Assembly: GCA_019638615.1 (NCBI GenBank)
Contig: JAHBTL010000018.1
Coordinates: 61,345-125,344 of the forward strand
DNA: 64,000 nt
Reading direction: 5' to 3'
DNA from: Chitinophagaceae bacterium
GTDB lineage: Bacteria > Bacteroidota > Bacteroidia > Chitinophagales > Chitinophagaceae
Both the position numbers and the translations under genes were made by a program. Numbering within the stretch: position 1 is the first letter of the stretch; each line of letters starts with the position of its first letter. The notes beneath the pieces were generated by a model. That model did not search any database and was not told the origin of the DNA. It was given only the letters and a program-made list of their open reading frames with translations. This document shows, one piece after another, positions 2,974 through 55,601 of this stretch.

Positions 2974-4824
2974 TCAGCTTTCAATAATGATCTTACTTTT
3001 TCTCTCTCCTCCTATCAGCTCCACGCTCCTGTTAATGAATTCAGTAAGATTATTGCCCTTTAAAAGCCCCTGCGACAGCAATGCCAGGTCTGCGAGGTTG
3101 TGAACCAGCTTTTGTTTTTTTGCGCTGTCGCTTTCGCTAAGTATGTTCTGAAATACAGGATGATTTCCATTAACTGTTAATGTCACTTCATCCGGCATAT
3201 TAGCATAAAAATTAGCCATGGGTCCGCTTACAGCCGCCATATCTTTCATACGGCGCATAAACTCTGGACGGGTTGCTACTACAGGCGGCGCTTCAGGACT
3301 TAACCCTTTTACATCCACCGTCATATTAATATCCTGCACTTTTACATCAAACAGGCTTTTTAAAGCACTCACCTCATCTGCAGAAAGAACAGAATCGCCT
3401 GCCTCCTGCTTATCAATCAAGTTATCCGCTATATCCGCATCTACACGTGTAAAAACAACGTTCTCCCACTTATGCTCTACCTGGTTTATAAAGGCCGCAT
3501 CCACCAGAGTTTCCATTTTCACTACTATATAACCCTTGGCTTTTGCCTGTTGTATATAAGCATCCTGCTGAACAGGGTGGGTGGTGTACAAAACAACCAG
3601 CTTACCCTCTTTGTTCTTCTGTAATGTTTCAGTAGCCAGCCGGTATTCTTCCAATGTGTAAAATTTACCGCCGTCAACATCTTCAAACAGGTTGAACTTA
3701 TTCGCTTTTTCGAAAAACTTATCGTCCGTCATCATTCCATACTTCACAAACAATCCAATGCTTTCCCATTTTTCCTCGAACTCCTTTCTTTCTTTATTAA
3801 AAATTTCCTCCAGTTTATCTGCTACTTTCTTTGTGATGTAATTATTGATCTTTTTAACGTTGGGATCGCCCTGCAAATAACTCCGGCTTACGTTCAATGG
3901 AATATCGGGCGAATCAATTACTCCCTGGAGCAACATCAGGAATTCAGGTACAATATCCTTTACCTCTTCTGTTACAAAAACCTGGTTGCTATACAGTTGA
4001 ATCTTATCTTTCTGGATCTCATAGCTTTGCTTGATTTTGGGGAAGTACAATATGCCTGTAAGATTAAAGGGATAATCTACATTTAAATGGATCCAGAATA
4101 AGGGTGTTTCATTAAAGGGATACAATTCCTTGTAAAAGTTCTGGTAATCTTCGGTAGTTAGTTCCGACGGTTTTTTAGTCCACGCCGGGGCCGTATTGTT
4201 GATTTGTTTATCCTCAAAAAATATAGGTACCGGTAAGAAGCGGCAGAACTTTTCCAGTATCTGCCTCAATCTTGAAGCATCCAAAAACTCCTTGCTTTCC
4301 TCGTTTATATGCAGTACTATATCTGTTCCTCTTTCTGCCTTTTCCGCTTCTTCGAGCGTAAATGCGGGACTTCCGTCGCATTCCCATTTAACAGCAGGCT
4401 GATCCTGCTGATAGGATTTCGTAATAACTTCCACCTTATCGCTCACCATGAACGACGAATAAAAGCCCAATCCAAAATGACCTATAATATTGGCTTCATT
4501 TTGCCCTTTATATTTCTGAAGAAATTCCTCCGCACCGCTGAAAGCTACCTGGTTCAGGTATTTGTCTACTTCCGCCGCAGTCATACCTACGCCCTTATCA
4601 GCTATCGTAATGGTTTTAGCTTCCGTATCCAGCTTTACATCAATCCGCAATTCACCTAATTCTCCTTTTGCCTCACCGATAGAAGAAAGCGTTTTTAGTT
4701 TTTGGGTAGCGTCAACAGCATTGCTTACCAGTTCGCGTAAAAAAATGTCATGTTCACTATAAAGAAACTTTTTAATAATCGGGAAAATATTCTCAGTCTG
4801 AACCCGTATGTTTCCTTTTTGCAT
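2974..4824 (-). CDS. htpG: Molecular chaperone HtpG (Hsp90)
   Basis: Bacterial Hsp90, a cytosolic ATP-dependent dimeric chaperone. The 616-residue length is normal. Visible landmarks are FLRELVSNAVDA (28-39) with the ATP/Mg-binding Glu and Asn, DKGVGM (76-81) and IGHFGLGFYSSFMV (114-127), which form the GHKL nucleotide pocket. The middle domain contains the conserved SYLQGDP segment, and the C-terminal dimerisation region ends in SKIIIES. The ATG is at 4822-4824. The gene is monocistronic, with an upstream element (4871-4910) shared with dnaK and hsp20 in this window, so heat-shock control is inferred. Confidence 0.98.
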   Translation of the reverse strand: MQKGNIRVQTENIFPIIKKFLYSEHDIFLRELVSNAVDATQKLKTLSSIGEAKGELGELRIDVKLDTEAKTITIADKGVGMTAAEVDKYLNQVAFSGAEEFLQKYKGQNEANIIGHFGLGFYSSFMVSDKVEVITKSYQQDQPAVKWECDGSPAFTLEEAEKAERGTDIVLHINEESKEFLDASRLRQILEKFCRFLPVPIFFEDKQINNTAPAWTKKPSELTTEDYQNFYKELYPFNETPLFWIHLNVDYPFNLTGILYFPKIKQSYEIQKDKIQLYSNQVFVTEEVKDIVPEFLMLLQGVIDSPDIPLNVSRSYLQGDPNVKKINNYITKKVADKLEEIFNKERKEFEEKWESIGLFVKYGMMTDDKFFEKANKFNLFEDVDGGKFYTLEEYRLATETLQKNKEGKLVVLYTTHPVQQDAYIQQAKAKGYIVVKMETLVDAAFINQVEHKWENVVFTRVDADIADNLIDKQEAGDSVLSADEVSALKSLFDVKVQDINMTVDVKGLSPEAPPVVATRPEFMRRMKDMAAVSGPMANFYANMPDEVTLTVNGNHPVFQNILSESDSAKKQKLVHNLADLALLSQGLLKGNNLTEFINRSVELIGGERKSKIIIES

Positions 4825-4870: not shown

Positions 4871-4910
4871 CAAATAAAATGCCATCAGCTTAATATATGA
4901 CAGGTTGGCA
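4871..4910 (-). promoter_or_regulatory. Candidate heat-shock element upstream of htpG
   Basis: Read on the minus strand: TGCCA, exactly 21 bp, TGGCAT, 5 bp, TTG. The TTG ends 47 bp before the htpG start codon. The same layout occurs before dnaK (10221-10260) and hsp20 (47588-47627). An extra TGTCA follows the first half-site here. The two half-sites are 26 bp apart, the same as the spacing between the -33 and -7 boxes of Bacteroidota promoters, so the element probably overlaps the promoter. Confidence 0.7.
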
Positions 4911-8259: not shown

Positions 8260-10173
8260 TTATTTTACTTCTTCAAATTCGGCATCGGTAACATTATCGC
8301 CTGCTGCTGCATTTGCACCCTGGGGCTCCTGCTGACCCGCTGCTGCACCTGCGTTAGGATTTGCACCAGCCTGCTGAGCTTTGTATATGTCTTCAGAAGC
8401 GGAAGTCCATGCAGCATTTAATTCACTTAAAGAGCTGTCAATGGATGCAATATCCTGCTGCTTGTGGGCCTCTTTCAGCTTGTTCAACGCACCTTCAATT
8501 GGTCCCTTTTTATCCGCAGGAATTTTATCTCCAAATTCCTTCAATTGTTTTTCTGTCTGGAAAATAAGACTATCTGCCTGGTTTACCTTATCTACTTTCT
8601 CGCGTGCTTCTTTATCCGAAGCTTCATTGGCTTTCGCCTCCGCTTTCATTTTCTCAACCTCTTCTTTATTTAAACCACTACCGGCTTCAATCCTGATTTT
8701 CTGCTCTTTGCCTGTACCCTTATCTTTTGCGGTTACATTCAGTATGCCGTTGGCATCAATATCAAAAATCACTTCAATTTGCGGTACGCCGCGTGGGGCC
8801 GGGGGTATACCATCCAGATTAAACATACCGAGACTCTTGTTCTGCGAAGCCATCGGTCTTTCACCCTGTAATACATGAATTTGTACGCCAGGCTGATTGT
8901 CGGAAGCAGTAGAGAACACTTCTGATTTTTTTGTGGGGATGGTTGTATTCGAGTCAATCAGGCGGGTCATTACACCACCCATTGTTTCAATACCCAGCGA
9001 AAGCGGTGTTACATCGAGTAACAGCACATCTTTCACCTCACCGGTTAATACGGCGCCCTGTATAGCAGCTCCAATCGCTACCACTTCATCGGGGTTTACC
9101 CCTTTATTGGGTTTCTTACCGAAGAATTTTTCAACTATTTCCTGCACTTTGGGTATACGGGTACTACCGCCTACCAGTATCACTTCATCAATTTGAGAAG
9201 TTGACAAACCGGCATCCTTCAACGCCTGCTCGCAAGGCTTCAAGCACCTTTCAAACAAACTGTCGCTCAACTGCTCGAATTTGGCACGGCTGAGTTTTTT
9301 TACCAGGTGCTTGGGAACACCGTCTACCGCAGTTATATATGGAAGGTTGATTTCTGTTTCACTGGAAGAAGAAAGCTCCACTTTAGCCTTTTCGGCAGCT
9401 TCTTTTAAGCGCTGTAATGCCATCGGGTCTTTTCTCAAATCAATATTTTCATCCTTTTTGAACTCATCAGCCAACCAGTCAATAATTACTTTATCAAAAT
9501 CATCACCCCCCAGGTGTGTATCCCCATTGGTGGATTTTACTTCAAATACTCCATCGCCCAGCTCAAGAATGGATATATCGAAGGTACCTCCACCCAGGTC
9601 AAACACAGCTATTTTCTCGTCTTTGTGCTTTTTATCCAAACCATACGCGAGTGCGGCAGCAGTAGGTTCGTTCACAATACGCCGCACTGTTAAGCCGGCT
9701 ATTTCACCTGCTTCTTTAGTAGCCTGGCGCTGGGCATCGTTAAAGTAGGCAGGTACGGTAATTACAGCTTCTGTAACTTCCTGCCCCAGGTAATCTTCAG
9801 CAGTTTTTTTCATTTTCTGCAAGATCATTGCCGAAATTTCCTGTGGCGTATACAGTCTGCCATCTATATCAATACGAACTGTATTATTGTCGCCTTTAAC
9901 TACTTTATAGCTCCAGTGCTTTATTTCTTCGCTTACTTCATCAAACCTGCGCCCCATAAAGCGTTTTACCGAAGTAATGGTATTAACCGGGTTGGTAATA
10001 GCCTGTCGTTTAGCGGGATCACCCACCTTGCGTTCCCCATTTTTAAGGAAAGCAACCACTGAAGGCGTGGTACGACGCCCTTCATCATTGGCAATTACAA
10101 CTGGTTCGGTGCCTTCCATAACGGCAACGCAACTATTCGTTGTTCCTAAATCTATTCCTATTATTTTTCCCAT
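8260..10173 (-). CDS. dnaK: Molecular chaperone DnaK (Hsp70)
   Basis: This 637-residue Hsp70 has the N-terminal ATPase ([16 protein letters not shown] at 5-20, [11 protein letters not shown] near 192, [13 protein letters not shown] near 335), the substrate-binding domain ([19 protein letters not shown]) and the helical lid with a Q/G/A-rich tail ending TDAEFEEVK. The length is normal. grpE and dnaJ are not adjacent; a CbpA-type DnaJ is encoded at 26969-27889. The gene is monocistronic with its own terminator, and a candidate heat-shock element lies at 10221-10260. Confidence 0.98.
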
Positions 10174-10220: not shown

Positions 10221-10260
10221 CAAGCATTATGCCATCCATTGCGTGAGTGAAAAAATGGCA
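10221..10260 (-). promoter_or_regulatory. Candidate heat-shock element upstream of dnaK
   Basis: Minus strand: TGCCA, 21 bp, TGGCAT, 5 bp, TTG, ending 48 bp before the dnaK start. Here the two half-sites extend to an inverted repeat, TGCCAT and ATGGCA. Same spacing as at htpG and hsp20. Confidence 0.7.
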
Positions 10261-15906: not shown

Positions 15907-16440
15907 TTATTGCTTTATATATTGCACTTCTGCCTGAATCCTTACTTCGTCACTTACCACCATCCCACCGGTTTCGGTAACTGCGCTCCAGTTAAGGCCA
16001 AAATCTTTACGATTGATTTTGCCCGATACTGAAAAACCGGCTTTTACCTGTCCAAAGGGATCTTTTGCAATACCTCCCGCTTCAACATGCAGCTTAACCG
16101 GCCTGGTAACGCCGTGTAAAGTAAGTTCTCCCGACAATTCGAAATCGCCCTCTCCCGCTTTCTTAAACCCGGTACTTTTAAAAGTAAACTCCGGGTATTT
16201 TTCGACATCAAAAAAATCAGCACTTTTCAGGTGACCATCCCTTTGTTCATTACCCGTGGTTATTGAGTTAACCTTACCGGTGAACAATATTTTGGCAGTA
16301 CCAAATTCTTCTCCTTCCGTTTCTACTTCTGAATTAAAGCTTTTAAAGCTGCCTGTTACATTCGTGATCATCAGGTGGCGTACTTTAAATTCTAGTTCGC
16401 TGTGTGCGGGATCTATAACCCATTTTGTTGTTGCAGACAT
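15907..16440 (-). CDS. YceI family protein
   Basis: A 177-residue YceI-fold lipocalin-like barrel that binds isoprenoid-type lipids in known members. It begins TKWVIDPAHSELEFKVRHLMITNVTGSFKSF, the classic family opening, and continues with DFFDVEKYPEFTFKSTGF and LTLHGVTRPVKLHVE. There is no signal peptide, so this is a cytoplasmic-type member, common in Bacteroidota. A perfect 18-bp palindrome lies 55 bp before its start and may be an operator. ssb is divergently placed. Confidence 0.95.
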   Translation of the reverse strand: MSATTKWVIDPAHSELEFKVRHLMITNVTGSFKSFNSEVETEGEEFGTAKILFTGKVNSITTGNEQRDGHLKSADFFDVEKYPEFTFKSTGFKKAGEGDFELSGELTLHGVTRPVKLHVEAGGIAKDPFGQVKAGFSVSGKINRKDFGLNWSAVTETGGMVVSDEVRIQAEVQYIKQ

Positions 16441-16512: not shown

Positions 16513-16635
16513 TCCAAGAAATATGCCAGACGGATTTACTGCCATTATGACGGCACATTTATTGCAAGCCTGTCTTTGATCGTAAAGAGAAATAATAATA
16601 TTAACTTGGGTCTTTAAAACTTAAAAGCAGATGCT

Positions 16636-47079: not shown

Positions 47080-47544
47080 CTATTGGATATCAATAGTACG
47101 TGATATCTTTTTTGCATTTTCCTTTTTAGGAATACTTACATGCAATACGCCATCTTCGTACCGGGCAGCGATATTGGAGGCGTCTACTGTTTCGTCAAGA
47201 TTAAAGCTCCTGCTGAACGCCTGGGCCCTGTATTCACGCCTGATCCACTGACCTGAAGCATCCTTTTGATTGTCCTCCTGCTTGTGCTCAAACGAAATTG
47301 AAAGCGTATCATCCGAAATGTTCAGTTGGAAATCCTGTTTTTTCAAACCTGGTGCAACAACTTCCATTTCATAGCTCTTGTCTGTTTCCCTCAAATTAAC
47401 AGGAACATTCTGTCGATGTAACGGACCGTTAACACCCCAATAGTCATCGTCGAAGAAACGGCTCAAATTATCCTGGAAGATCTGATCAACAACACTTCCA
47501 AAAGCTGCTGGACGGGCATTGTCTTTTTTAATGATGTTTGGCAT
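47080..47544 (-). CDS. hsp20: Small heat-shock protein Hsp20
   Basis: A 154-residue alpha-crystallin-type holdase. The N-terminal arm is followed by the core domain: NVPVNLRETDKSYEMEVVAPGLKKQDFQLNI, RREYRAQAFSRSFNLDETVD, and the family signature ARYEDGVLHVSIPKKE. A clear GGAGG ribosome site lies seven bases before the ATG, unusual for Bacteroidota and consistent with strong expression. The candidate heat-shock element lies at 47588-47627. Confidence 0.97.
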   Translation of the reverse strand: MPNIIKKDNARPAAFGSVVDQIFQDNLSRFFDDDYWGVNGPLHRQNVPVNLRETDKSYEMEVVAPGLKKQDFQLNISDDTLSISFEHKQEDNQKDASGQWIRREYRAQAFSRSFNLDETVDASNIAARYEDGVLHVSIPKKENAKKISRTIDIQ

Positions 47545-47587: not shown

Positions 47588-47627
47588 CAACCTCAATGCC
47601 AGATAAATAATTTCTGAAATTTTGACA
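47588..47627 (-). promoter_or_regulatory. Candidate heat-shock element upstream of hsp20
   Basis: Minus strand: TGTCA, 21 bp, TGGCAT, 5 bp, TTG, ending 44 bp before the hsp20 ATG. Layout identical to the htpG and dnaK elements. Confidence 0.7.
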
Positions 47628-47747
47628 ACTGCTATTTTTCATATGCAACGAAATGCGGAAAAATTTGCACTATTCAGCCTGTGTAAGATGAAAGATTGTC
47701 ATTGATCCTGATTTCGGGGTTCAGAGAAAAATATATACATTCAGGAA

Positions 47748-48437
47748 ATGACGACGCCGGTTTATTATAATCCACTGCAACTTACATCCAAACAACTGGA
47801 CACATTGTTGTCGAAAGGGTGGTACCGGATGCATCAAAGCGTTTTTACCACCAATTATATTTTCATGGATAATAAGACGCTGCGCGTATTTTGGCTAAGA
47901 TATTCACTGCAAAAGTTGCAGTTCAGCAAAAAGCAACGAAAGCTTTTACAGCAAAACCAGCGTTTCAAAGTAACCAATAAACCAATGGCAATAACCGAAG
48001 AACTGGAGCATTTATATGCGCTGTATAAAACAGCTATTTCATTTGAACCATCTCCTTCTGTTACTGACTGGTTATATGGCGAAGATGACGACAAAAAGAT
48101 TTTCGATACACATATCATAGAGATAAGAGACGGAGAAAAACTTATAGCAGCCGGTATATACGATAAGGGAAACAGGAGCATTGCCGGTATCATGAATTTT
48201 TATCACCCCGAATACCGGAAGCTCAGCCTTGGCAAATACCTTGTTCTGTTAAAGGCGCAATATGCCATGGCGTCTCATTTAAAATGGTATTACCCCGGGT
48301 ACATTACACACGGCTACCCGGCATTTGATTATAAGCTTTTTGTAGGCGAGCCGAATATTGAAGTTTTTGTACCGGAGTTAAATGGCTGGTATCAGTACAA
48401 CACAGATATGCTTAACGCCGTAGCCGGTAATATATAA
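47748..48437 (+). CDS. Arginyl-tRNA-protein transferase-like (GNAT fold) protein
   Basis: A 229-residue protein. The opening LDTLLSKGWYRMHQSVFTTNY resembles the Arg/Leu-tRNA-protein transferase N-terminal segment (GWRRFGxxxF), and the late KWYYPGYITHGYPAFDYKLF matches the family's YYPGY-type C-terminal motif. These enzymes add an amino acid to protein N-termini, marking them for degradation. It is shorter than Ate1/Bpt, and the N-terminal Cys cluster of those enzymes is absent, so the activity is uncertain. A general acetyltransferase role is possible. It converges on the next gene with a 6-bp gap. Confidence 0.65.
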   Translation: MTTPVYYNPLQLTSKQLDTLLSKGWYRMHQSVFTTNYIFMDNKTLRVFWLRYSLQKLQFSKKQRKLLQQNQRFKVTNKPMAITEELEHLYALYKTAISFEPSPSVTDWLYGEDDDKKIFDTHIIEIRDGEKLIAAGIYDKGNRSIAGIMNFYHPEYRKLSLGKYLVLLKAQYAMASHLKWYYPGYITHGYPAFDYKLFVGEPNIEVFVPELNGWYQYNTDMLNAVAGNI

Positions 48438-48443
48438 ATTGTT

Positions 48444-49418
48444 TTACCAACCCAGTATCCAGGCAAATATCAAAGGAGCTACAATGGTAGCATCACTTTC
48501 AACAATAAATTTAGGCGTATTAATGTCCAGCTTTCCCCAGGTAATTTTTTCGTTCGGCACTGCCCCGGAGTAAGATCCGTAGGAAGTGGTGGAATCGCTG
48601 ATCTGGCAGAAATAGCTCCAGAAAGGAACATCGTGCCACTCAAGATCCTGGTACATCATGGGAACAACGCAGATAGGGAAATCGCCGGCAATACCACCCC
48701 CAATCTGAAAAAAGCCGACACCCTTTCCTCCGCTGTTGTTGCGATACCAGTCGGCCAGCCACACCATGTATTCTATCCCGCTTTTCATGGCGGAAGCTTT
48801 TATTTCATTCTTTATAACATACGATGCAAATATGTTTCCCATGGTACTGTCTTCCCAGCCGGGCACAACAATAGGAATGCTTTTTTCGGCTGCAGCCAGC
48901 ATCCAACTGTTTTTGGGATCTATTTCATAATACTGCTCCAGGACGCCGCTCAACAGCATTTTATACATATACTCATGAGGAAAGTAACGCTCGCCCTTTG
49001 CATCGGCTTCTTTCCATATTTTAGCTATATGCTGTTGTATTCTCCTGAAGGCCTCTTCTTCAGGAATACAGGTATCCGTAACCCGGTTATAGTGATTTTC
49101 CAGCAAGTCCCATTCATCCTGCGGGTTCAGGTCTCTGTAGTGGGGAACTCTTTTATAGTGACTGTGAGCCACCAGGTTCATTATATCTTCTTCGAGGTTC
49201 GCGCCTGTACAACTGATAATATGAACTTTGTCCTGCCGGATTATTTCAGCCAGCGACAAGCCCAGCTCCGCGGTGCTCATTGCACCGGCAAGCGTAATCA
49301 TCATTTTACCGCCTTCCAGCAAGTGTGTTTCATATCCTTTTGCTGCATCCATTAAAGCAGCGGCATTAAAATGACGGTAGTGATGCTGAATGTATTGAGA
49401 CACGGGACCTTTACTCAT
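48444..49418 (-). CDS. Deoxyhypusine synthase family protein
   Basis: A 324-residue NAD-dependent enzyme of the deoxyhypusine/homospermidine synthase group. Seen: LAGAMSTAELGLSLAEIIR, HIISCTGANLEEDIMNLVAHSHYKR, a VVPGWEDSTMGNIF loop, VGFFQIGGGIAGDFPICV and the active-Lys segment EKITWGKLD (eukaryotic enzyme: SWGKI). Bacteria lack eIF5A, so these members probably make homospermidine or a related polyamine; that is inference. The ATG is at 49416-49418. Confidence 0.92.
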   Translation of the reverse strand: MSKGPVSQYIQHHYRHFNAAALMDAAKGYETHLLEGGKMMITLAGAMSTAELGLSLAEIIRQDKVHIISCTGANLEEDIMNLVAHSHYKRVPHYRDLNPQDEWDLLENHYNRVTDTCIPEEEAFRRIQQHIAKIWKEADAKGERYFPHEYMYKMLLSGVLEQYYEIDPKNSWMLAAAEKSIPIVVPGWEDSTMGNIFASYVIKNEIKASAMKSGIEYMVWLADWYRNNSGGKGVGFFQIGGGIAGDFPICVVPMMYQDLEWHDVPFWSYFCQISDSTTSYGSYSGAVPNEKITWGKLDINTPKFIVESDATIVAPLIFAWILGW

Positions 49419-49667: not shown

Positions 49668-50027
49668 GTTTTAACCAGATTATTTACAGGTCTGCTCTTT
49701 AAAATCGTTTAGTATCAACTCATCATTATTATCATAATCAACCGAAACTATCAACTGGAGCAATCCAACCGGGTCTGCAGCATCTTTGCTCAATCTTACA
49801 TGATTGGGTTCCTGCCGGATACTAAAAATTATGAACAATGCTTTGATTAATCATTTTTATTTTCTAATATTACTTTCCCTCCCTGAGCAGAAGCCTATGA
49901 TCCTTTTTATAACATTACTATCCGCAACTAGAAAACTTTAGCGTATAAAACACCTGCCATCCCCTGTAAATCACATCCTGATTTTGTGTAAAACCTGTCC
50001 ATTTGTTCATGCATTAAATTCAATTTG
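49668..50027. other. Gene-free stretch before the giant genes
   Basis: No intact gene. On the minus strand 49680-49850 stays open without an ATG (QEPNHVRLSKDAADPVGLL ... DFKEQTCK) and could be another decayed gene end. No convincing promoter for the gene at 50028 was found; TCCATTTG at 49998-50005 is one base off the -7 consensus but lacks a -33 partner. Confidence 0.4.
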
Positions 50028-53000
50028 ATGACACAGGCGCAATTGTCTGCCATGCTCGAAAGCATTACCGGTCACCTTATCGCCAAAAGCGGCGCACAGG
50101 AAGAGCAACTTCAGCAGGCACGAATAAAAGTCGCATCTTCTCTGCTTAGTCAGCCAATAGAAAATACGGGCAGCGAGCAGCTTTTTTATAAAGCCAATCT
50201 ATATAGCAGGGAGAATATTAAAAGTGATACACTGCAAAGTATAGACAACCTGGCCCACCAGTTAATTGGCAATGCCGGGGCGGAACCAACCGAAAATATT
50301 TTTGTACGGAGCACGCCGATATTAAATGCAGCTATTGCGGGCAGCAAGCCCGACTGGGCCGCTGGCGTTTCCCCGGCTGAAAGCTTTGGCCCGTTTTTGA
50401 ATAATGAAGGGCGTGAAATATGGATAGATATTTACCGTGTAGAAAAGCTGATCACGCTGTATCTCGGTAACCAGCCTATTCTTTTATTTAAAACTTCGCT
50501 CCGCGGCGGCATATTCCTGCCCGCCAATCAACTCTCTACCGCTTATAATATTGTTGCCGGCAGTGTTTGGATCAATGCAAAATTTTTGTACGCTTCCGCG
50601 GCAGCAGACAGATTTGTTGGGGTACAGGTAAACAAGGGAACGCTCAAATTAAGCGCTGCGCCAACACTGCAGAACAACCAGATAACAATTAACCCGGCTA
50701 CGGCAATAGAAATGTCGCTGGAGCTGGTTCAGGATGAAGATGACGGAGCAACAGAAACTTCCCCTTATGGTAAAGATGCACGTGATGCCGTTTATATGCT
50801 TCCTGCAACATGGGCATTTACATGGCAAAACAATAAAGCGAACGTTACGCAGGTTGCTCTATCTTCCTGTAATATATACGGTCAGGATATTGCTTTCAGC
50901 TTTACGCCTGCGGCAGGCACTGCCTTCAAATATGTAAATGATATGCTGCTGATCCCCTGGAAAGCAAGCGTAAATGAATTTAGCTTTTTAAAAAATAAAA
51001 GCCCGTGGATTTTATCTGCCGACACCGCGGAGCTGCAAAAATCATATTGGGCTTTGCCAACCAGCGCAATCAATATAGCCTCACCTGTTGCTGCTTCCGG
51101 CAACGGATTGGTAATGCTGCAATGTGCAGAAGGATTACGCATCAGTTGGGCAGGGTTGCAGGATGAAGATATCCGTCTTGTTGCTCCAACAATATTAGGC
51201 AAGCCAGGTGATATTGCTGTTATTGATCTTGAATCGAATGGACTTGGCGCATCACATCATTTACAATTATGGCAGGATAACGAGAACCCCCATGGCACAA
51301 CCGCTGATCTTTTATTGCTGGAAAAAGCGCCGCTTATTTTTATCAGCAGCAGTAAGGCCGCGGTTGAAGTGATCAGCACTTTCTGCGCGGCAGATATACA
51401 GTCCGACAGACCAGTGAAAGTAAACGGTGAGCCATTCCCCGTAGAATCTTTATCGTGCTCACTAATGTTGAGCGGCGGCAAAAATGGAAGAAAGATAATG
51501 CTGATAGAAGATGATGTACAGGCTGACCAGGCAGTAAATGCTAATATAGCTGGCGCAGCTCAGCAGGTCCGGTTGTTTTCCATTGCGCTCGAAAATGCTT
51601 TGTTCACCGTATCTCCTGTAAAAACATTTATTCTTTTTGGAGAGTGCGATGATAGCATGACGGATGTGAAGCGCGGAAATTTTATTGTTGTATTTACACT
51701 CTACAGCTATTTGCCAACCCTGCCTGATCCTTATGTAGCGAACCTGGGATTATGGAGAAGGGGAGCCGGCAATGACCGGTATAACCGTCTTGCGGGAGCG
51801 GCGGGCTTCAGCAGCCTGCTGGTTTGTTTCATCACTTTTGTTGGGGCTGATGAAGCAACAGATAATGTAAAAGTCAACTTTTACTTTGGCGGCGTTGAGC
51901 TGCCCAATATTATGGATCTTCCGCAGCAAACGCCTGCTAAAAAAGCGCTTAAAGCATCTTCGGCAAAAGCAAGAACTACTATTACAGCGTTAAAAAAACC
52001 ATTACGACAAACAGCAACCGCCGCAAGATCGCTGTTCGGCAATTTGCGCACAACAACCAAATTAACAAGCAACCAGTTTTTACCGGAAGTAACAGATGAT
52101 ATTCTAACCGGCGAAATCATAAAACAGGAACCTCAACTGAATGTTGACCTGCTCTCAGGGTATAAAGATCCAAATGGAAAAATATACGATGCCGATACGC
52201 TTGCCAAAATAAAGAGAGACATAGAAGATGTATGGGATAGCAGCATCGGTGTTCAGCATGAATTTTTTTCTTTGTTAGATGTAAGCAGCAATGCCAACCA
52301 GTTGGGTGTAAGCTTTGGAACCAACTGGCAGATCATAAAAACAGGAAGTGTTCGCGGCAGGGACGGAGAAGTGCATAATATAGATTACAATGCCGCGGCA
52401 TATAATACCGCGTTCCCGTTTTTGGTGGAAGGCATGCAGGTTAAACTGCCATCGCACCGGGTGCGCGCCTTCACATTGCCGTTAATGGCCTGGGAGCCGG
52501 AGATCAATCTCACTCCGCCGGATAGTGATAATCCTCCTGCAAAATTATTAATGGATCCCGATGCAGGCTTTTTATATTATGCTGATGATGGCGGCCCGGC
52601 ACGTATATGGAATAACAATGCTGCCCCTGTTCCGTTGGCGCCCATACCCGTTACTAATGGATTGATTGAAGACTTTACATCGCAACCGGATAATTATACA
52701 CTGGCAACCTTCACCCTGCCATTTGGCTTAAAAGCCATCAGCTATATTTCAAAACATTTTGTTGAACCGCAAAAGCCGGCTATTGAAAATATCCGCCCCA
52801 GGTTCAGGAAGAATGAAGAAGATAATACTTATAAACTTGAGGGAGGGATACAGGTAAGCCTGCAGGCAGGAAGGTTCGGCAAACCCAATCCTGCCAATCC
52901 ATCAGAATATGACAGTGATATGTTTCCCGGCTATACTGTTCAGGCAAATAACCTGCTGAACTGGTATGGTATTGCTTCTTATGCAAGCAACCTGGGGCAC

Positions 53001-55601
53001 AGAGTTACAGAAATTTTTAATAATGAATTTTTATTCGGACCATTAAGCCTTTCCCCTCTTTTAAAAGATTCACGTGGTGTGCCTGTTTCCCGTATGGATG
53101 TTACAGGATATGGCGCCAGTATTTTCAGCAATTGGGTAAGTCCCGGTGCGGCGTTGGCGCAAACCAGTAAAGCAAGATTTGATGTGATGCTGGGTCGCAC
53201 GGGGCATGAAGTGATACAGGTGAAAAGCATTCTGTATCCCTGGGGTATACGTGTAGTGCGCACCATTACGGTTTTCCGTACCGGATCGGGCTATGTGTTC
53301 AGAACTGATAGCGGCTGGAAAGCGGAAAGCGACGGATTATTCGATTTTTCTTTCAGCTATTTAAAGAAAAATGTTGATCCGTTTGGCAATCTTACCACCA
53401 ACGATTTTAAGCATATACCCGATGAAGTAAATGGAATACCTCCGCAATATGAGTTTCACACGGGTATTATCAGGGGGCTATTTAATGTAAGAAATATTAA
53501 AGATGCGCCTTCTGTTACGGAGTATAAAAGTGAAAACATTATTGCTCCAAATGCTGATTACGTGAACGGTATAAAAGGGCAGGAATATACCAATGGTGCA
53601 ACAGAAAAACACGAACCTGTAAAATGTGGCGGCGTATATTTTGACGCGGACGTAGAAATAGAAAATGTAGTACAGGGGCATGTAAATAAAAGAGTAGTAT
53701 CAAAGCGCATACTTGGTTATGTGCAGGTGGCACCGGCAGGGAAGCCGCTAACTGCCCAACAGTTAAAAGAACTGCTGGATCTGCAAAACGGGAGCATCGG
53801 CGGCGATATAGATTGTGTGCTCAATATAAACAATAGCAACCAGCAAATACGTACGGCACGTTTTGATGTAGCGCCGTCTGTTAATAAGGCAGGTAACAGC
53901 CCGGTATTTGTAGTGGCGGCAAGGGGGTTGGTATTTCTTCCCAAAGATGGTAGCTGGGCTTTGGTGCAGCACAATGTAGGCACAGGAGAAGTTACGCCGT
54001 TGCCAACAGATACAATGATTCCGCTTATTCGCACAGGTGCATGGAAAAAAGGAAATGTGGTTGATAACAATACTCTGCAGAAGCAACTTGTTCGTGTAGC
54101 GCACCCCATGGAAATATTACGTGATCCTGCTGCTGACACACTGAACTTCGGTTACCTGCAATCAACCGCTACGCAAAAAGCATTGTTCCTTACTCCGGCG
54201 TACGAACTGAATAATGCTAAAATGCTCAGCAAAACGCCGCCTGTTTTTGCTGATGCTTACCGCCTGATGAGCGGAGAAAGTATATTTCCCAATATCGGTA
54301 ATGCTATAGACAATTTTGGCAAGGCAATGCCGCTGCTCAACAGCAAAGATGGTAATGGCAATACCTTCCAGGCTTTTGCGCAAAGCGCATTGGAAGACGG
54401 AGGAACAAAGGTTTGGGAGTTGATGCAGGTGGAAGCAGTGAAAGCAGGTGAAGCCGTGATCAGCCAGGGTATGAATATGCTGAAACAGGGAGCAAATGGC
54501 ATTCTTGATAAAGCATTGAGGTTTGATGTGCCTTCTTTTGAAGTGCCGCTGGTAGATACGGAAGCGCTTAGAATATATATTGAATATAAAACAGGTAAAA
54601 AGGATGCTCCTGCCAATACTTATGTAGACAGTAAACTGAACTTTGATGTAGATTCCTTTGCAGGCGATATGGCCGACCAGTGGAAAAGCCGTTTGAATAA
54701 CCTGGCAATGGTGGTTGACCTGGGTGATATGAAACGCCTGATGACCATCAAGGGGAACTTTGATGCAAAGAAAGGTAAGGAGAGTAATTATGAAGGTGGG
54801 CCGGATGCGGGTTCTGACGGTTTGCCCATGCCGGAAATAGAATTCAGCGATGCTTTACAACCGGTAATTGATATACTGCAGATGCTGGCATCATTAAGCA
54901 CCAATGATTATAAAGATGTATTGAAGAAAGGATTGAAGCTTGCCATGAGCAACAGCGGTGAAATATGGCAATATAAGTTTGAAGCCAGCAAAGAGATCGC
55001 CACCATCCGTTTCCCGCCACTGGAAGAAGCATACAACAGCGCCCAAACCCCGCTCAAGCTCGAAGCGTCATTAAGCGCAGGCGTATATTTTAATGCCGCA
55101 TTAAAAGTTACAACAGATCCTTCACAGCTTTTACCAACTGCAGGAGCATTTCTGCAATTCCACGGCGGTTTGCAGATCATGTGTTACTCCGTAGGTGTTG
55201 GTTCTATATATGCCATTGGAGCGGTAGATGTAAAAATTGCTGCGGATACCAAGGTTGGCCCGAGCTTGTACCTGAAATTTGGTTTTGGGGTATCTATAGT
55301 CGTTAGTCTGCCTGTGGTTGGCAATGCCAGCGTAAGCTTTATGGTAGGTGTGGAAATGTATGCAGATAAAGATAAAGTGGTGCTGGCGGCATTAATGGTA
55401 TTTAAAGGTCAGGCAAACCTGCTGGGTGGTTTGGTATGTGTTGCCATTACAATAGAAGCCAAAGGAATAGTGGTACGGGAACTGGGCAGTGATAAAACAG
55501 ACTGCAGCGCACAGGTAACATTTGCTATCGACATCAGCATATTCCTGATCATTGATATCAGCTTCTCCAAAACATGGGGAGAAGACAGGCAGATAGCGTA
55601 G
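50028..55601 (+). CDS. Giant protein of unknown function (1857 aa), first of a pair
   Basis: I do not recognise this family. The 1857-residue protein has no signal peptide and no T9SS tail, so it appears cytosolic or is exported unusually. The N-terminal 80 residues are helical (AQLSAMLESITGHL). Most of the rest reads as beta-rich modules. A basic Ala/Lys/Thr linker (PAKKALKASSAKARTTITAL) lies near 632-680, helices near 1430-1510, and a final block from about 1675 with long alternating small/hydrophobic strands (LKLEASLSAGVYFNAALKV, GPSLYLKFGFGVSIVV, NASVSFMVGVEMY) like a barrel or membrane-inserting sheet. The start is ATG 50028, preceded by an in-frame TTG. The 1478-aa partner follows 174 bp downstream. 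Confidence 0.85.
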   Translation: MTQAQLSAMLESITGHLIAKSGAQEEQLQQARIKVASSLLSQPIENTGSEQLFYKANLYSRENIKSDTLQSIDNLAHQLIGNAGAEPTENIFVRSTPILNAAIAGSKPDWAAGVSPAESFGPFLNNEGREIWIDIYRVEKLITLYLGNQPILLFKTSLRGGIFLPANQLSTAYNIVAGSVWINAKFLYASAAADRFVGVQVNKGTLKLSAAPTLQNNQITINPATAIEMSLELVQDEDDGATETSPYGKDARDAVYMLPATWAFTWQNNKANVTQVALSSCNIYGQDIAFSFTPAAGTAFKYVNDMLLIPWKASVNEFSFLKNKSPWILSADTAELQKSYWALPTSAINIASPVAASGNGLVMLQCAEGLRISWAGLQDEDIRLVAPTILGKPGDIAVIDLESNGLGASHHLQLWQDNENPHGTTADLLLLEKAPLIFISSSKAAVEVISTFCAADIQSDRPVKVNGEPFPVESLSCSLMLSGGKNGRKIMLIEDDVQADQAVNANIAGAAQQVRLFSIALENALFTVSPVKTFILFGECDDSMTDVKRGNFIVVFTLYSYLPTLPDPYVANLGLWRRGAGNDRYNRLAGAAGFSSLLVCFITFVGADEATDNVKVNFYFGGVELPNIMDLPQQTPAKKALKASSAKARTTITALKKPLRQTATAARSLFGNLRTTTKLTSNQFLPEVTDDILTGEIIKQEPQLNVDLLSGYKDPNGKIYDADTLAKIKRDIEDVWDSSIGVQHEFFSLLDVSSNANQLGVSFGTNWQIIKTGSVRGRDGEVHNIDYNAAAYNTAFPFLVEGMQVKLPSHRVRAFTLPLMAWEPEINLTPPDSDNPPAKLLMDPDAGFLYYADDGGPARIWNNNAAPVPLAPIPVTNGLIEDFTSQPDNYTLATFTLPFGLKAISYISKHFVEPQKPAIENIRPRFRKNEEDNTYKLEGGIQVSLQAGRFGKPNPANPSEYDSDMFPGYTVQANNLLNWYGIASYASNLGHRVTEIFNNEFLFGPLSLSPLLKDSRGVPVSRMDVTGYGASIFSNWVSPGAALAQTSKARFDVMLGRTGHEVIQVKSILYPWGIRVVRTITVFRTGSGYVFRTDSGWKAESDGLFDFSFSYLKKNVDPFGNLTTNDFKHIPDEVNGIPPQYEFHTGIIRGLFNVRNIKDAPSVTEYKSENIIAPNADYVNGIKGQEYTNGATEKHEPVKCGGVYFDADVEIENVVQGHVNKRVVSKRILGYVQVAPAGKPLTAQQLKELLDLQNGSIGGDIDCVLNINNSNQQIRTARFDVAPSVNKAGNSPVFVVAARGLVFLPKDGSWALVQHNVGTGEVTPLPTDTMIPLIRTGAWKKGNVVDNNTLQKQLVRVAHPMEILRDPAADTLNFGYLQSTATQKALFLTPAYELNNAKMLSKTPPVFADAYRLMSGESIFPNIGNAIDNFGKAMPLLNSKDGNGNTFQAFAQSALEDGGTKVWELMQVEAVKAGEAVISQGMNMLKQGANGILDKALRFDVPSFEVPLVDTEALRIYIEYKTGKKDAPANTYVDSKLNFDVDSFAGDMADQWKSRLNNLAMVVDLGDMKRLMTIKGNFDAKKGKESNYEGGPDAGSDGLPMPEIEFSDALQPVIDILQMLASLSTNDYKDVLKKGLKLAMSNSGEIWQYKFEASKEIATIRFPPLEEAYNSAQTPLKLEASLSAGVYFNAALKVTTDPSQLLPTAGAFLQFHGGLQIMCYSVGVGSIYAIGAVDVKIAADTKVGPSLYLKFGFGVSIVVSLPVVGNASVSFMVGVEMYADKDKVVLAALMVFKGQANLLGGLVCVAITIEAKGIVVRELGSDKTDCSAQVTFAIDISIFLIIDISFSKTWGEDRQIA

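What the first reader, a model, noticed from the sequence alone, without database searches (positions are those of the whole stretch)
10221..10260. Shared, identically spaced element before htpG, dnaK and hsp20
All three classical heat-shock genes in the window carry TGYCA-N21-TGGCAT-N5-TTG on their coding strand: 4871-4910, 10221-10260 and 47588-47627. The TTG ends 47, 48 and 44 bp before the start codons. Under uniform base use the 14 fixed positions give about 7e-9 per site (2/4^5 x 1/4^6 x 1/4^3), so chance is not a good explanation. Bacteroidota generally lack the RpoH-type heat-shock sigma factor and no CIRCE repeat is present, so this may be the operator or alternative promoter of their heat-shock response. 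Half-sites 26 bp apart match the -33/-7 spacing. cbpA, usp and the RRM gene do not have it.
Basis: partly seen in the sequence, partly recalled or inferred. Interest (0 to 1): 0.78.

Follow-up and report, generated by a model that had tools for sequence, protein, structure and literature searches.

The report
Sigma-54 heat-shock promoters with phased enhancer
Three chaperone genes in this Bacteroidota genome share a sigma-54-type promoter with a small activator-binding site just upstream, and related bacteria tend to keep that site on the same face of the DNA helix, which points to a dedicated activator of the heat-shock genes.

Summary
The element is real. In the 7.18-Mb genome the pattern occurs four times: before htpG, dnaK and hsp20, and once antisense inside a biotin-ligase gene. 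TGGCAT-N5-TTG is a sigma-54 (RpoN) -24/-12 box, not a -33/-7 promoter; the genome encodes RpoN. TGYCA is half of a 13-bp dyad, TGNCA-N3-TKNCA. In 147 family genomes dyad plus box hits 71 places in 63 genomes; 70 precede dnaK, htpG or hsp20 (reversed-pattern control: 2). Spacing is 12-14 bp in the family, not strictly fixed. Across the class the dyad lies 12 to 97 bp upstream of the box at dnaK and groES, in steps of 10.5 bp (R 0.84; 0 of 20,000 random sets), as expected of an enhancer whose activator must face the polymerase. The likely activator is an orphan PspF-like protein encoded just upstream of groES-groEL in 32 of 40 class regions. Sigma-54 boxes before these chaperones, with mapped 5' ends, are already published for Flavobacterium psychrophilum. 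I found no report of the phased dyad or its activator in eight searches. Binding, RpoN dependence and heat induction are untested here.

The parts
10248..10260 (-). dnaK upstream dyad TGCCA-TTT-TTTCA (proposed enhancer / activator site), 13 bp before the -24 box
   Evidence: a dyad (second half T[GTA]NCA) lies 12-14 bp before the box in 76 of 76 named relatives with the box
10229..10234 (-). dnaK -24 element TGGCAT
   Evidence: 79 of 79 named relatives with upstream DNA match [TGC]GGCAY-N5-TTG
10221..10223 (-). dnaK -12 element TTG (next base T, not the consensus C); predicted start of transcription about 10208
   Evidence: start inferred from sigma-54 geometry, not measured
8260..10173 (-). 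dnaK
   Evidence: NCBIfam PRK00290/TIGR02350 above cut-off
4898..4910 (-). htpG upstream dyad TGCCA-ACC-TGTCA
   Evidence: htpG of 12 of 12 genus genomes carries it, gap 13 in 11 and 12 in one
4879..4884 (-). htpG -24 element TGGCAT
4871..4873 (-). htpG -12 element TTG; predicted start of transcription about 4858
   Evidence: start inferred
2974..4824 (-). htpG
   Evidence: NCBIfam PRK05218 above cut-off
47615..47627 (-). hsp20 proximal dyad TGTCA-AAA-TTTCA
47689..47701 (-). hsp20 distal dyad, 87 bp before the -24 box, about seven helical turns from the proximal one
47596..47601 (-). hsp20 -24 element TGGCAT
47588..47590 (-). hsp20 -12 element TTG; predicted start of transcription about 47575
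   Evidence: start inferred
47080..47544 (-). small heat-shock protein gene (hsp20 / alpha-crystallin type)
   Evidence: matches Hsp18/Hsp20/IbpB models below their cut-offs

Best explanation
The shared element is a sigma-54 (RpoN) dependent promoter plus an enhancer. TGGCAT-N5-TTG is the -24/-12 box that binds RNA polymerase carrying sigma-54, which cannot open DNA by itself. TGNCA-N3-TKNCA, 12-14 bp upstream in this family, binds an activator. Under heat or protein-folding stress the activator assembles there and uses ATP to open the complex, switching on dnaK, htpG, hsp20 and, with differently spaced dyads, groES-groEL. The most likely activator is the orphan PspF-like enhancer-binding protein (EBP) encoded between miaB and lptE (G000 C33:57609-58862, own locus L200), whose gene lies a few genes upstream of groES-groEL in 32 of 40 class regions examined. 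Shown by sequence: the box, the dyad, their specificity to chaperone genes, the helical phasing, presence of RpoN and of the EBP, the gene order. Inferred: that RpoN uses the box, that this EBP binds the dyad, that heat is the signal. How the EBP is kept off without stress is unknown; release from a bound chaperone is my guess. My split: sigma-54 promoter about 0.93, dyad is an activator site about 0.9, this EBP is the activator about 0.75.
For: Box matches the sigma-54 consensus TGGCAC-N5-7-TTGCT quoted in PMC12316311. Own genome has one RpoN with three sigma-54 Pfam domains. dnaK box (TTG form) in 28 of 30 order loci, the other two having no upstream DNA (L017) or GGGCAT (L018); in 76 of 79 named relatives, 3 more as GGGCAT; by a stricter pattern in 59 of 73 class genomes, reversed control 0. 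groES: TGGCAY-N7-G (one CGGCAC) in 26 of 30 order loci, 32 of 32 class loci. Specificity: 70 of 71 family hits before dnaK, htpG or hsp20. Loci with a dyad within 220 bp, against the dinucleotide-shuffle mean: dnaK 23 of 28 vs 0.73, htpG 13 of 21 vs 0.31, groES 13 of 26 vs 0.41, hsp20 6 of 10 vs 0.22, phylum dnaK 23 of 30 vs 0.64. Phasing on newly fetched data: 21 collapsed gaps, R 0.842, best period 10.5 bp, 0 of 20,000 random sets. EBP: ortholog in 38 of 38 order genomes (one as a fragment, one aligned over 307 residues) and 73 of 73 class genomes; tblastn over 70 loci gives G[AS][FY]TGA in 69 and the HTH helix GISERTLYRK in 63 with near variants in 7; groES and groEL in the same cluster and strand in 32 of 40 regions, all seven genes detected in 23. 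In G009, G015, G019, G021 the only other EBP at E<=1e-60 has no HTH hit and reads GSFTSA. Published: F. psychrophilum 5' ends of groESL, lon, dnaK, grpE-dnaJ, htpG and clpB lie at sigma-54 motif SM4 (PMC9723704).
Against: No experiment ties RpoN, the EBP or heat to these sites. The consensus C after the -12 G is missing at all three window sites and in 76 of 79 family dnaK promoters; groES boxes often lack TTG. In one search no usable box was found at 9 of 30 htpG and 20 of 30 hsp20 loci, so htpG and above all hsp20 are less conserved members. EBP assignment is indirect: the EBP is in every class genome, including 14 of 73 where the dnaK pattern was not found, and at weaker scores in 100 of 223 genomes of other classes, so co-occurrence does not discriminate; two own receiver-domain EBPs also carry an HTH; in G029 the second EBP reads GSFTSA but has an HTH; one L037-type ortholog of 70 reads GSFTSA. 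No strict box lies upstream of the EBP gene in 30 of 30 loci. No dyad at 8 of 59 class dnaK and 9 of 32 class groES promoters, nor at dnaK or groES of G025, an order genome with a single EBP match. The second dnaK and second hsp20 of this assembly lack the strict box. In F. psychrophilum the strongest SM4 induction named was on blood agar; heat was not among the conditions in what I read.
Confidence: 0.78

Rival explanations
1. A sigma-54 promoter as above, but the dyad is bound by a different activator (one of the receiver-type EBPs, or a co-regulator that is not an EBP), while the PspF-like EBP acts elsewhere.
For: Own genome has two further EBPs with a Fis-type HTH (L038, L039). EBP presence does not discriminate between genomes with and without the dnaK pattern.
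Against: The PspF-like EBP is found in every class genome (73 of 73) and is linked to groES-groEL in 32 of 40 regions; the others' spread was not measured. In G009, G015, G019 and G021 the only other EBP at E<=1e-60 has no HTH hit and GSFTSA, while G009 and G015 keep the dyad at dnaK. In G029 the other EBP has an HTH. Five more two-match genomes (G011, G023, G028, G033, G037) were not read, and the E cut-off may hide weaker EBPs.
Confidence: 0.15
2. A housekeeping (sigma-A, -33/-7) promoter with a repressor or activator palindrome; TTG is the -33 element.
For: A weak TANNTT excess 18-19 nt after the TTG (16 of 79) fits an overlapping -7 box in some genomes.
Against: No TANNTTTG in 79 of 79; 79 of 79 match [TGC]GGCAY at exactly 5 bases from TTG, which sigma-A would not need; F. 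psychrophilum maps dnaK, htpG and groES 5' ends to the -24/-12 motif.
Confidence: 0.05
3. Chance or shared ancestry of neighbouring DNA, without function.
For: dnaK and htpG lie about 5 kb apart in the window, and close relatives share sequence by descent.
Against: Flanking columns carry little information while box and dyad stay; 71 hits vs 2 for the reversed pattern; groES and other families show the same dyad at phased distances.
Confidence: 0.01

Closest known systems
Sigma-54 (SM4) promoters of chaperone genes in Flavobacterium psychrophilum (PMC9723704; passages and section 15 part 1 seen)
   Same: -24/-12 boxes before dnaK, htpG, groES-groEL, grpE-dnaJ, lon, clpB, with experimentally mapped 5' ends; a sigma-54 regulator gene beside lptE and near groES by locus tag (THC0290_0733/0732 against 0729/0728)
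   Different: What I read names no upstream activator site, no phasing and no activator for the chaperone cluster; it notes three PF00158 proteins
Predicted sigma-54 regulon of Bacteroidota chaperones (PMC12316311; sections 15, 16, parts of the references and passages seen)
   Same: GroEL, IbpA, GroES, GrpE, DnaJ, DnaK predicted sigma-54 dependent and enriched in Bacteroidota, HSP90 family in Bacteroidia
   Different: Promoter scores only; no enhancer site or activator in what I read
Sigma-54 promoters with upstream activator sites, NtrC/NifA type (recalled)
   Same: -24/-12 box, upstream dyad, AAA+ activator, dependence on helical face
   Different: Here the dyad can lie as close as 12-14 bp from the -24 box; classical sites lie about 80-150 bp upstream (recalled)
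PspF, phage-shock activator of E. coli (NCBIfam TIGR02974; PDB 2bjw and others)
   Same: AAA+ sigma-54 activator without N-terminal sensor domain, with HTH
   Different: Below the PspF model cut-off (274.9 against 443.55 bits); 418 aa with a conserved short segment between AAA+ and HTH; different gene neighbourhood
RpoH (sigma-32) and HrcA/CIRCE heat-shock control (recalled)
   Same: Coordinate control of dnaK, groESL, htpG
   Different: No CIRCE better than random; RpoH not searched; here an ATP-driven activator would stand in for a sigma switch or repressor

Membership tests
Sigma-54-dependent promoter | GG doublet of the -24 element in TGGCAY | tested here: met
   3 of 3 window sites; 76 of 79 named relatives match [TC]GGCAY-N5-TTG and the other 3 GGGCAT
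Sigma-54-dependent promoter | G of the -12 element at fixed distance (10 bases) from the -24 GG | tested here: met
   TTG at N5 in 3 of 3 window sites and 79 of 79 relatives; groES 32 of 32 class loci match TGGCAY-N7-G
Sigma-54-dependent promoter | C after that G (TTGC; a consensus position, not invariant: PMC12316311 lists validated E. coli promoters without TTGC) | tested here: not met
   A or T at 3 of 3 window sites; C in 3 of 79 family dnaK
Sigma-54-dependent promoter | Genome encodes RpoN and activators | tested here: met
   four PF00158 proteins of strong score, one of them (L036) with GSFTSA and no HTH
Sigma-54-dependent promoter | Transcript starts about 12 nt after the -12 box and needs RpoN | not testable with these tools
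   5' ends at this motif reported for dnaK, htpG and groES of F. psychrophilum, not for this organism
Bacterial enhancer (UAS) for an EBP | Dyad upstream of the box, at variable distance but on one helical face | tested here: met
   gaps 12-97, period 10.5, R 0.842, n=21 collapsed; species within families are not independent
Bacterial enhancer (UAS) for an EBP | Binding by the EBP | not testable with these tools
   none
Bacterial enhancer-binding protein (activator candidate) | AAA+ domain with GAFTGA loop and Fis-type HTH | tested here: met
   PF00158 E 4.3e-69, PF02954 E 1.2e-12; G[AS][FY]TGA in 69 of 70 loci, GSFTSA in 1
PspF equivalog | Score above the curated PspF model cut-off | tested here: not met
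   274.9 bits against 443.55
HrcA/CIRCE operator | TTAGCACTC-N9-GAGTGCTAA (consensus recalled) | tested here: not met
   best matches no better than random sequence in 30 upstream regions for each of four genes
RpoH-type heat-shock promoter | RpoH encoded in the genome | not tested

The most novel reading that the evidence does not exclude
Class Bacteroidia has a dedicated heat-shock regulator of a kind not described before: a universal, sensorless PspF-like enhancer-binding protein, encoded with groES-groEL, that drives the core chaperone genes through sigma-54 from short-range enhancers kept in helical phase from one to nine turns upstream of the box, in place of the RpoH or HrcA systems of other bacteria, and that is probably released by unfolded protein through loss of chaperone binding.
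Probability: 0.5. Interest if true: 0.78.

Novelty: new variant of a known kind. Interest (0 to 1): 0.62.

Why it matters
How Bacteroidota, a dominant phylum of gut, soil and water, switch on their chaperones has, in what I found, no answer beyond reported sigma-54 boxes. A conserved enhancer and one named candidate activator turn that into a direct test: delete one gene, move one site by half a helical turn. Control of core chaperones by an ATP-driven activator rather than by a sigma switch or a repressor would be a different logic of heat-shock control. The phasing from one to nine turns across many species is also a natural experiment on how close an enhancer may lie to sigma-54 polymerase.

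Tried and rejected
-33/-7 (sigma-A) reading: rejected for lack of a TANNTTTG box, with the weak TANNTT excess noted. CIRCE/HrcA: no match better than random. The first regex demanded TTG at -12 and gave groES 0 of 30; reading the sequences showed NNG instead, so that negative came from my pattern. Strict 13-bp spacing as a defining feature: dropped after (12-14 bp). Further regulon members with a dyad 13 bp from the box: a one-mismatch scan of 12 genus genomes gave 37 places: dnaK 12 (11 by coordinates, G006 by sequence likeness), htpG 11, hsp20 2, 11 alike to the own biotin-ligase site (only the own copy was read), and 1 unidentified; reversed control 1. Members with the dyad at other distances would be missed. 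EBP autoregulation: no strict box upstream of the EBP gene on its coding strand in 30 of 30 loci (one lies downstream in L227); looser groES-type boxes were not sought there. EBP/dnaK co-occurrence across the phylum: not discriminating. A first count of the GAFTGA loop used ORFs picked by that very motif; I replaced it by the unpicked tblastn count.

Left out of counts: L017 and L267 have no upstream DNA. One search kept loci for 30 of its 38 matches, searches likewise 30 each. In one search, loci without a box in range or with under 150 bp upstream were dropped (28 dnaK, 21 htpG, 26 groES, 10 hsp20 of 30 each were counted; two of the htpG boxes are weak CGGCAC matches). One search used 59 dnaK loci of the class (30, 29) and 32 groES loci; 11 of the 40 loci lie outside the class and were looked at apart (dyad in 5 of 11). 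The 40 regions are 40 of the 57 same-class genomes, taken by hand down the list. L202, L203 and L480 were fetched and not used. The one family hit before none of the three genes (L179) was not identified: one search failed on a wrong frame.

Full report
Observation. The pattern TGYCA-N21-TGGCAT-N5-TTG is present exactly at 4871-4910, 10221-10260 and 47588-47627 on the minus strand, before HtpG, DnaK and an Hsp20-type gene. In the whole genome in which the window lies (G000, 7.18 Mb) the pattern with TGGCAY has four matches: these three and one antisense inside a biotin-ligase gene; the reversed pattern has none. So three of four sit at chaperone genes.

What the right half is. TGGCAT-N5-TTG is the -24/-12 box of sigma-54 promoters (consensus TGGCAC-N5-7-TTGCT as quoted in PMC12316311). 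The genome encodes one RpoN with activator-interacting, core-binding and DNA-binding domains and four strong PF00158 proteins. The dnaK box in TTG form is found in 28 of 30 order loci (L017 has no upstream DNA, L018 reads GGGCAT) and in 76 of 79 named records, mostly Chitinophagaceae by title, with the other three as GGGCAT (this set shares some genomes with the former). A stricter pattern that includes the dnaK start finds it in 59 of 73 class genomes (48 of 57 outside the order) and 21 of 223 other phylum genomes, several of which look accidental; reversed control 0. The C after the -12 G is rare (3 of 79). A first regex missed groES; reading the sequences shows TGGCAY-N7-G (one as CGGCAC) 67-111 bp before the matched GroES domain in 26 of 30 order loci and in 32 of 32 class loci.

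What the left half is. TGYCA belongs to a 13-bp dyad TGNCA-N3-TKNCA. In the genus the dnaK dyad often reads TGCCATTTTTGCA and the htpG dyad TGCCAACCTGTCA or TGTCAACCTGTCA; in more distant families mostly TGNCA-N3-TGTCA (48 dyads). Dyad plus box in 147 family genomes: 71 hits in 63 genomes, reversed control 2. All 71 were classified: 59 dnaK, 9 htpG, 2 hsp20, 1 other (63 by tblastn, 8 by coordinates). That 84 genomes have no strict hit fits the 12- and 14-bp gaps seen elsewhere, but was not checked genome by genome. In the window the only three boxes with a dyad are those of the three genes; two other strict boxes (16528 and 2519, minus strand) have none.

Helical phasing. In one search the gaps at dnaK, groES and hsp20 of distant relatives clustered near 12, 22, 43, 54, 65, 74 and 86 bp. 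I noted the prediction gap = 12.7 + 10.5k and then fetched 29 further class dnaK loci and 40 regions that gave 32 groES promoters. On these, collapsed to one value per family, gene and cluster (21 values, families f18, f20, f21, f22, f23, f25), the Rayleigh length is 0.842 at 10.5 bp (phase about 12.0 + 10.5k), the best of the periods 8.5-13 is 10.5, and 0 of 20,000 random sets reach it; all 26 values give 0.792. Dyads are found at 51 of 59 class dnaK (43 of 48 outside the own order) and 23 of 32 class groES promoters, against about 2% of shuffled sequences. The own hsp20 promoter has two dyads, 13 and 87 bp away, seven turns apart. Such phasing is what a DNA-bound activator needs to reach the polymerase over short DNA. 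Cautions: species within a family are not independent; the f20 dnaK gaps of the new set repeat those of the first set; the random gaps were drawn evenly from 8 to 110.

The activator. The protein of L037 (418 aa, AAA+ sigma-54 activation domain plus Fis-type HTH, no N-terminal sensor) has an ortholog in 38 of 38 order genomes (G011 a fragment, G035 aligned over 307 residues) and in all 73 class genomes, plus weaker matches in 100 of 223 genomes of other classes. tblastn over 70 loci gives the loop G[AS][FY]TGA in 69 and GSFTSA in one, and the HTH helix GISERTLYRK in 63 with single changes in 7; a short segment between AAA+ and HTH is also conserved. In 32 of 40 class regions groES and groEL lie in the same cluster and strand as the EBP, in the order miaB-EBP-lptE-TPR-secG-groES-groEL; all seven were detected in 23. 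In the own genome miaB-EBP-lptE-TPR-secG remains but groES is on another contig. Of the other own EBPs, L036 has no HTH and GSFTSA. Ten order genomes have two matches at E<=1e-60; I read the second EBP of five: in G009, G015, G019 and G021 it has no HTH hit and reads GSFTSA, in G029 it reads GSFTSA but has an HTH. The dnaK promoters of those first four keep the box, with a full dyad in G009 and G015 and a one-mismatch dyad in G019 and G021. EBPs with weaker scores could be missed, so this is support rather than proof. Against: the EBP is as present in genomes where the dnaK pattern was not seen, and G025, with one EBP match, has the box but no dyad.

Literature. PMC9723704 (passages and section 15 part 1 seen): in Flavobacterium psychrophilum 5'-end RNA-Seq places groESL, lon, dnaK, grpE-dnaJ, htpG and clpB behind motif SM4, the -24/-12 motif; mutation of SM4 was tested at a gliding operon; three PF00158 proteins are noted and not assigned. 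Its table also lists a 'probable sigma-54-dependent transcriptional regulator' with LptE (0733/0732), a few locus tags from groES-groEL (0729/0728), as expected from the order found here. PMC12316311 (sections 15, 16, parts of the references, passages seen) predicts the same genes as sigma-54 dependent in Bacteroidota. Eight searches listed no paper that, by title and start of abstract, treats a phased chaperone enhancer or this EBP as its activator; subscription papers are mostly not held.

Verdict. Real, and in good part explained: sigma-54 chaperone promoters as already reported in Flavobacterium, here extended to this family and class. What is new, as far as I could search, is the chaperone-specific dyad, its helical phasing over one to nine turns, and a single candidate activator tied to groES-groEL.

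Noticed in passing
window 16515-16555, minus strand: A sigma-54-like box TGGCATATTTCTTG 75-88 bp before a YceI-like gene (15907-16440), without the chaperone dyad but with an inverted repeat TGCC-N8-GGCA (16540-16555) just upstream; perhaps a target of another EBP.
   Followed up: partly
L036 (G000 C23), L481-L484: A receiver-AAA+ protein closest to NtrX models, without HTH and with GSFTSA in place of GAFTGA, in this genome and four relatives; possibly unable to activate sigma-54.
   Followed up: partly
G000 C67:98523-100439 (L198): A second dnaK, 82% identical at protein level, without the sigma-54 box; the assembly has 3.79% estimated contamination, so it may belong to another organism.
   Followed up: no
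L004 275-314 and similar matches: The only other exact genome match is antisense inside a biotin-ligase gene; 10 genus relatives have a closely similar match, probably because the coding sequence is conserved (those copies were not read).
   Followed up: partly
window 47748-49418: Next to hsp20 lie an arginyltransferase-like gene (47748-48437, below cut-offs) and a deoxyhypusine synthase-like gene (48444-49418).
   Followed up: no
groES promoters, L075-L104 and L437-L476: groES boxes keep TGGCAY and the -13 G but often replace TT of the -12 element (TCG, ATG, CTG, TAG), unlike dnaK.
   Followed up: partly
window 50025-55601: An 1858-aa open frame with no Pfam match at E<=0.001.
   Followed up: no
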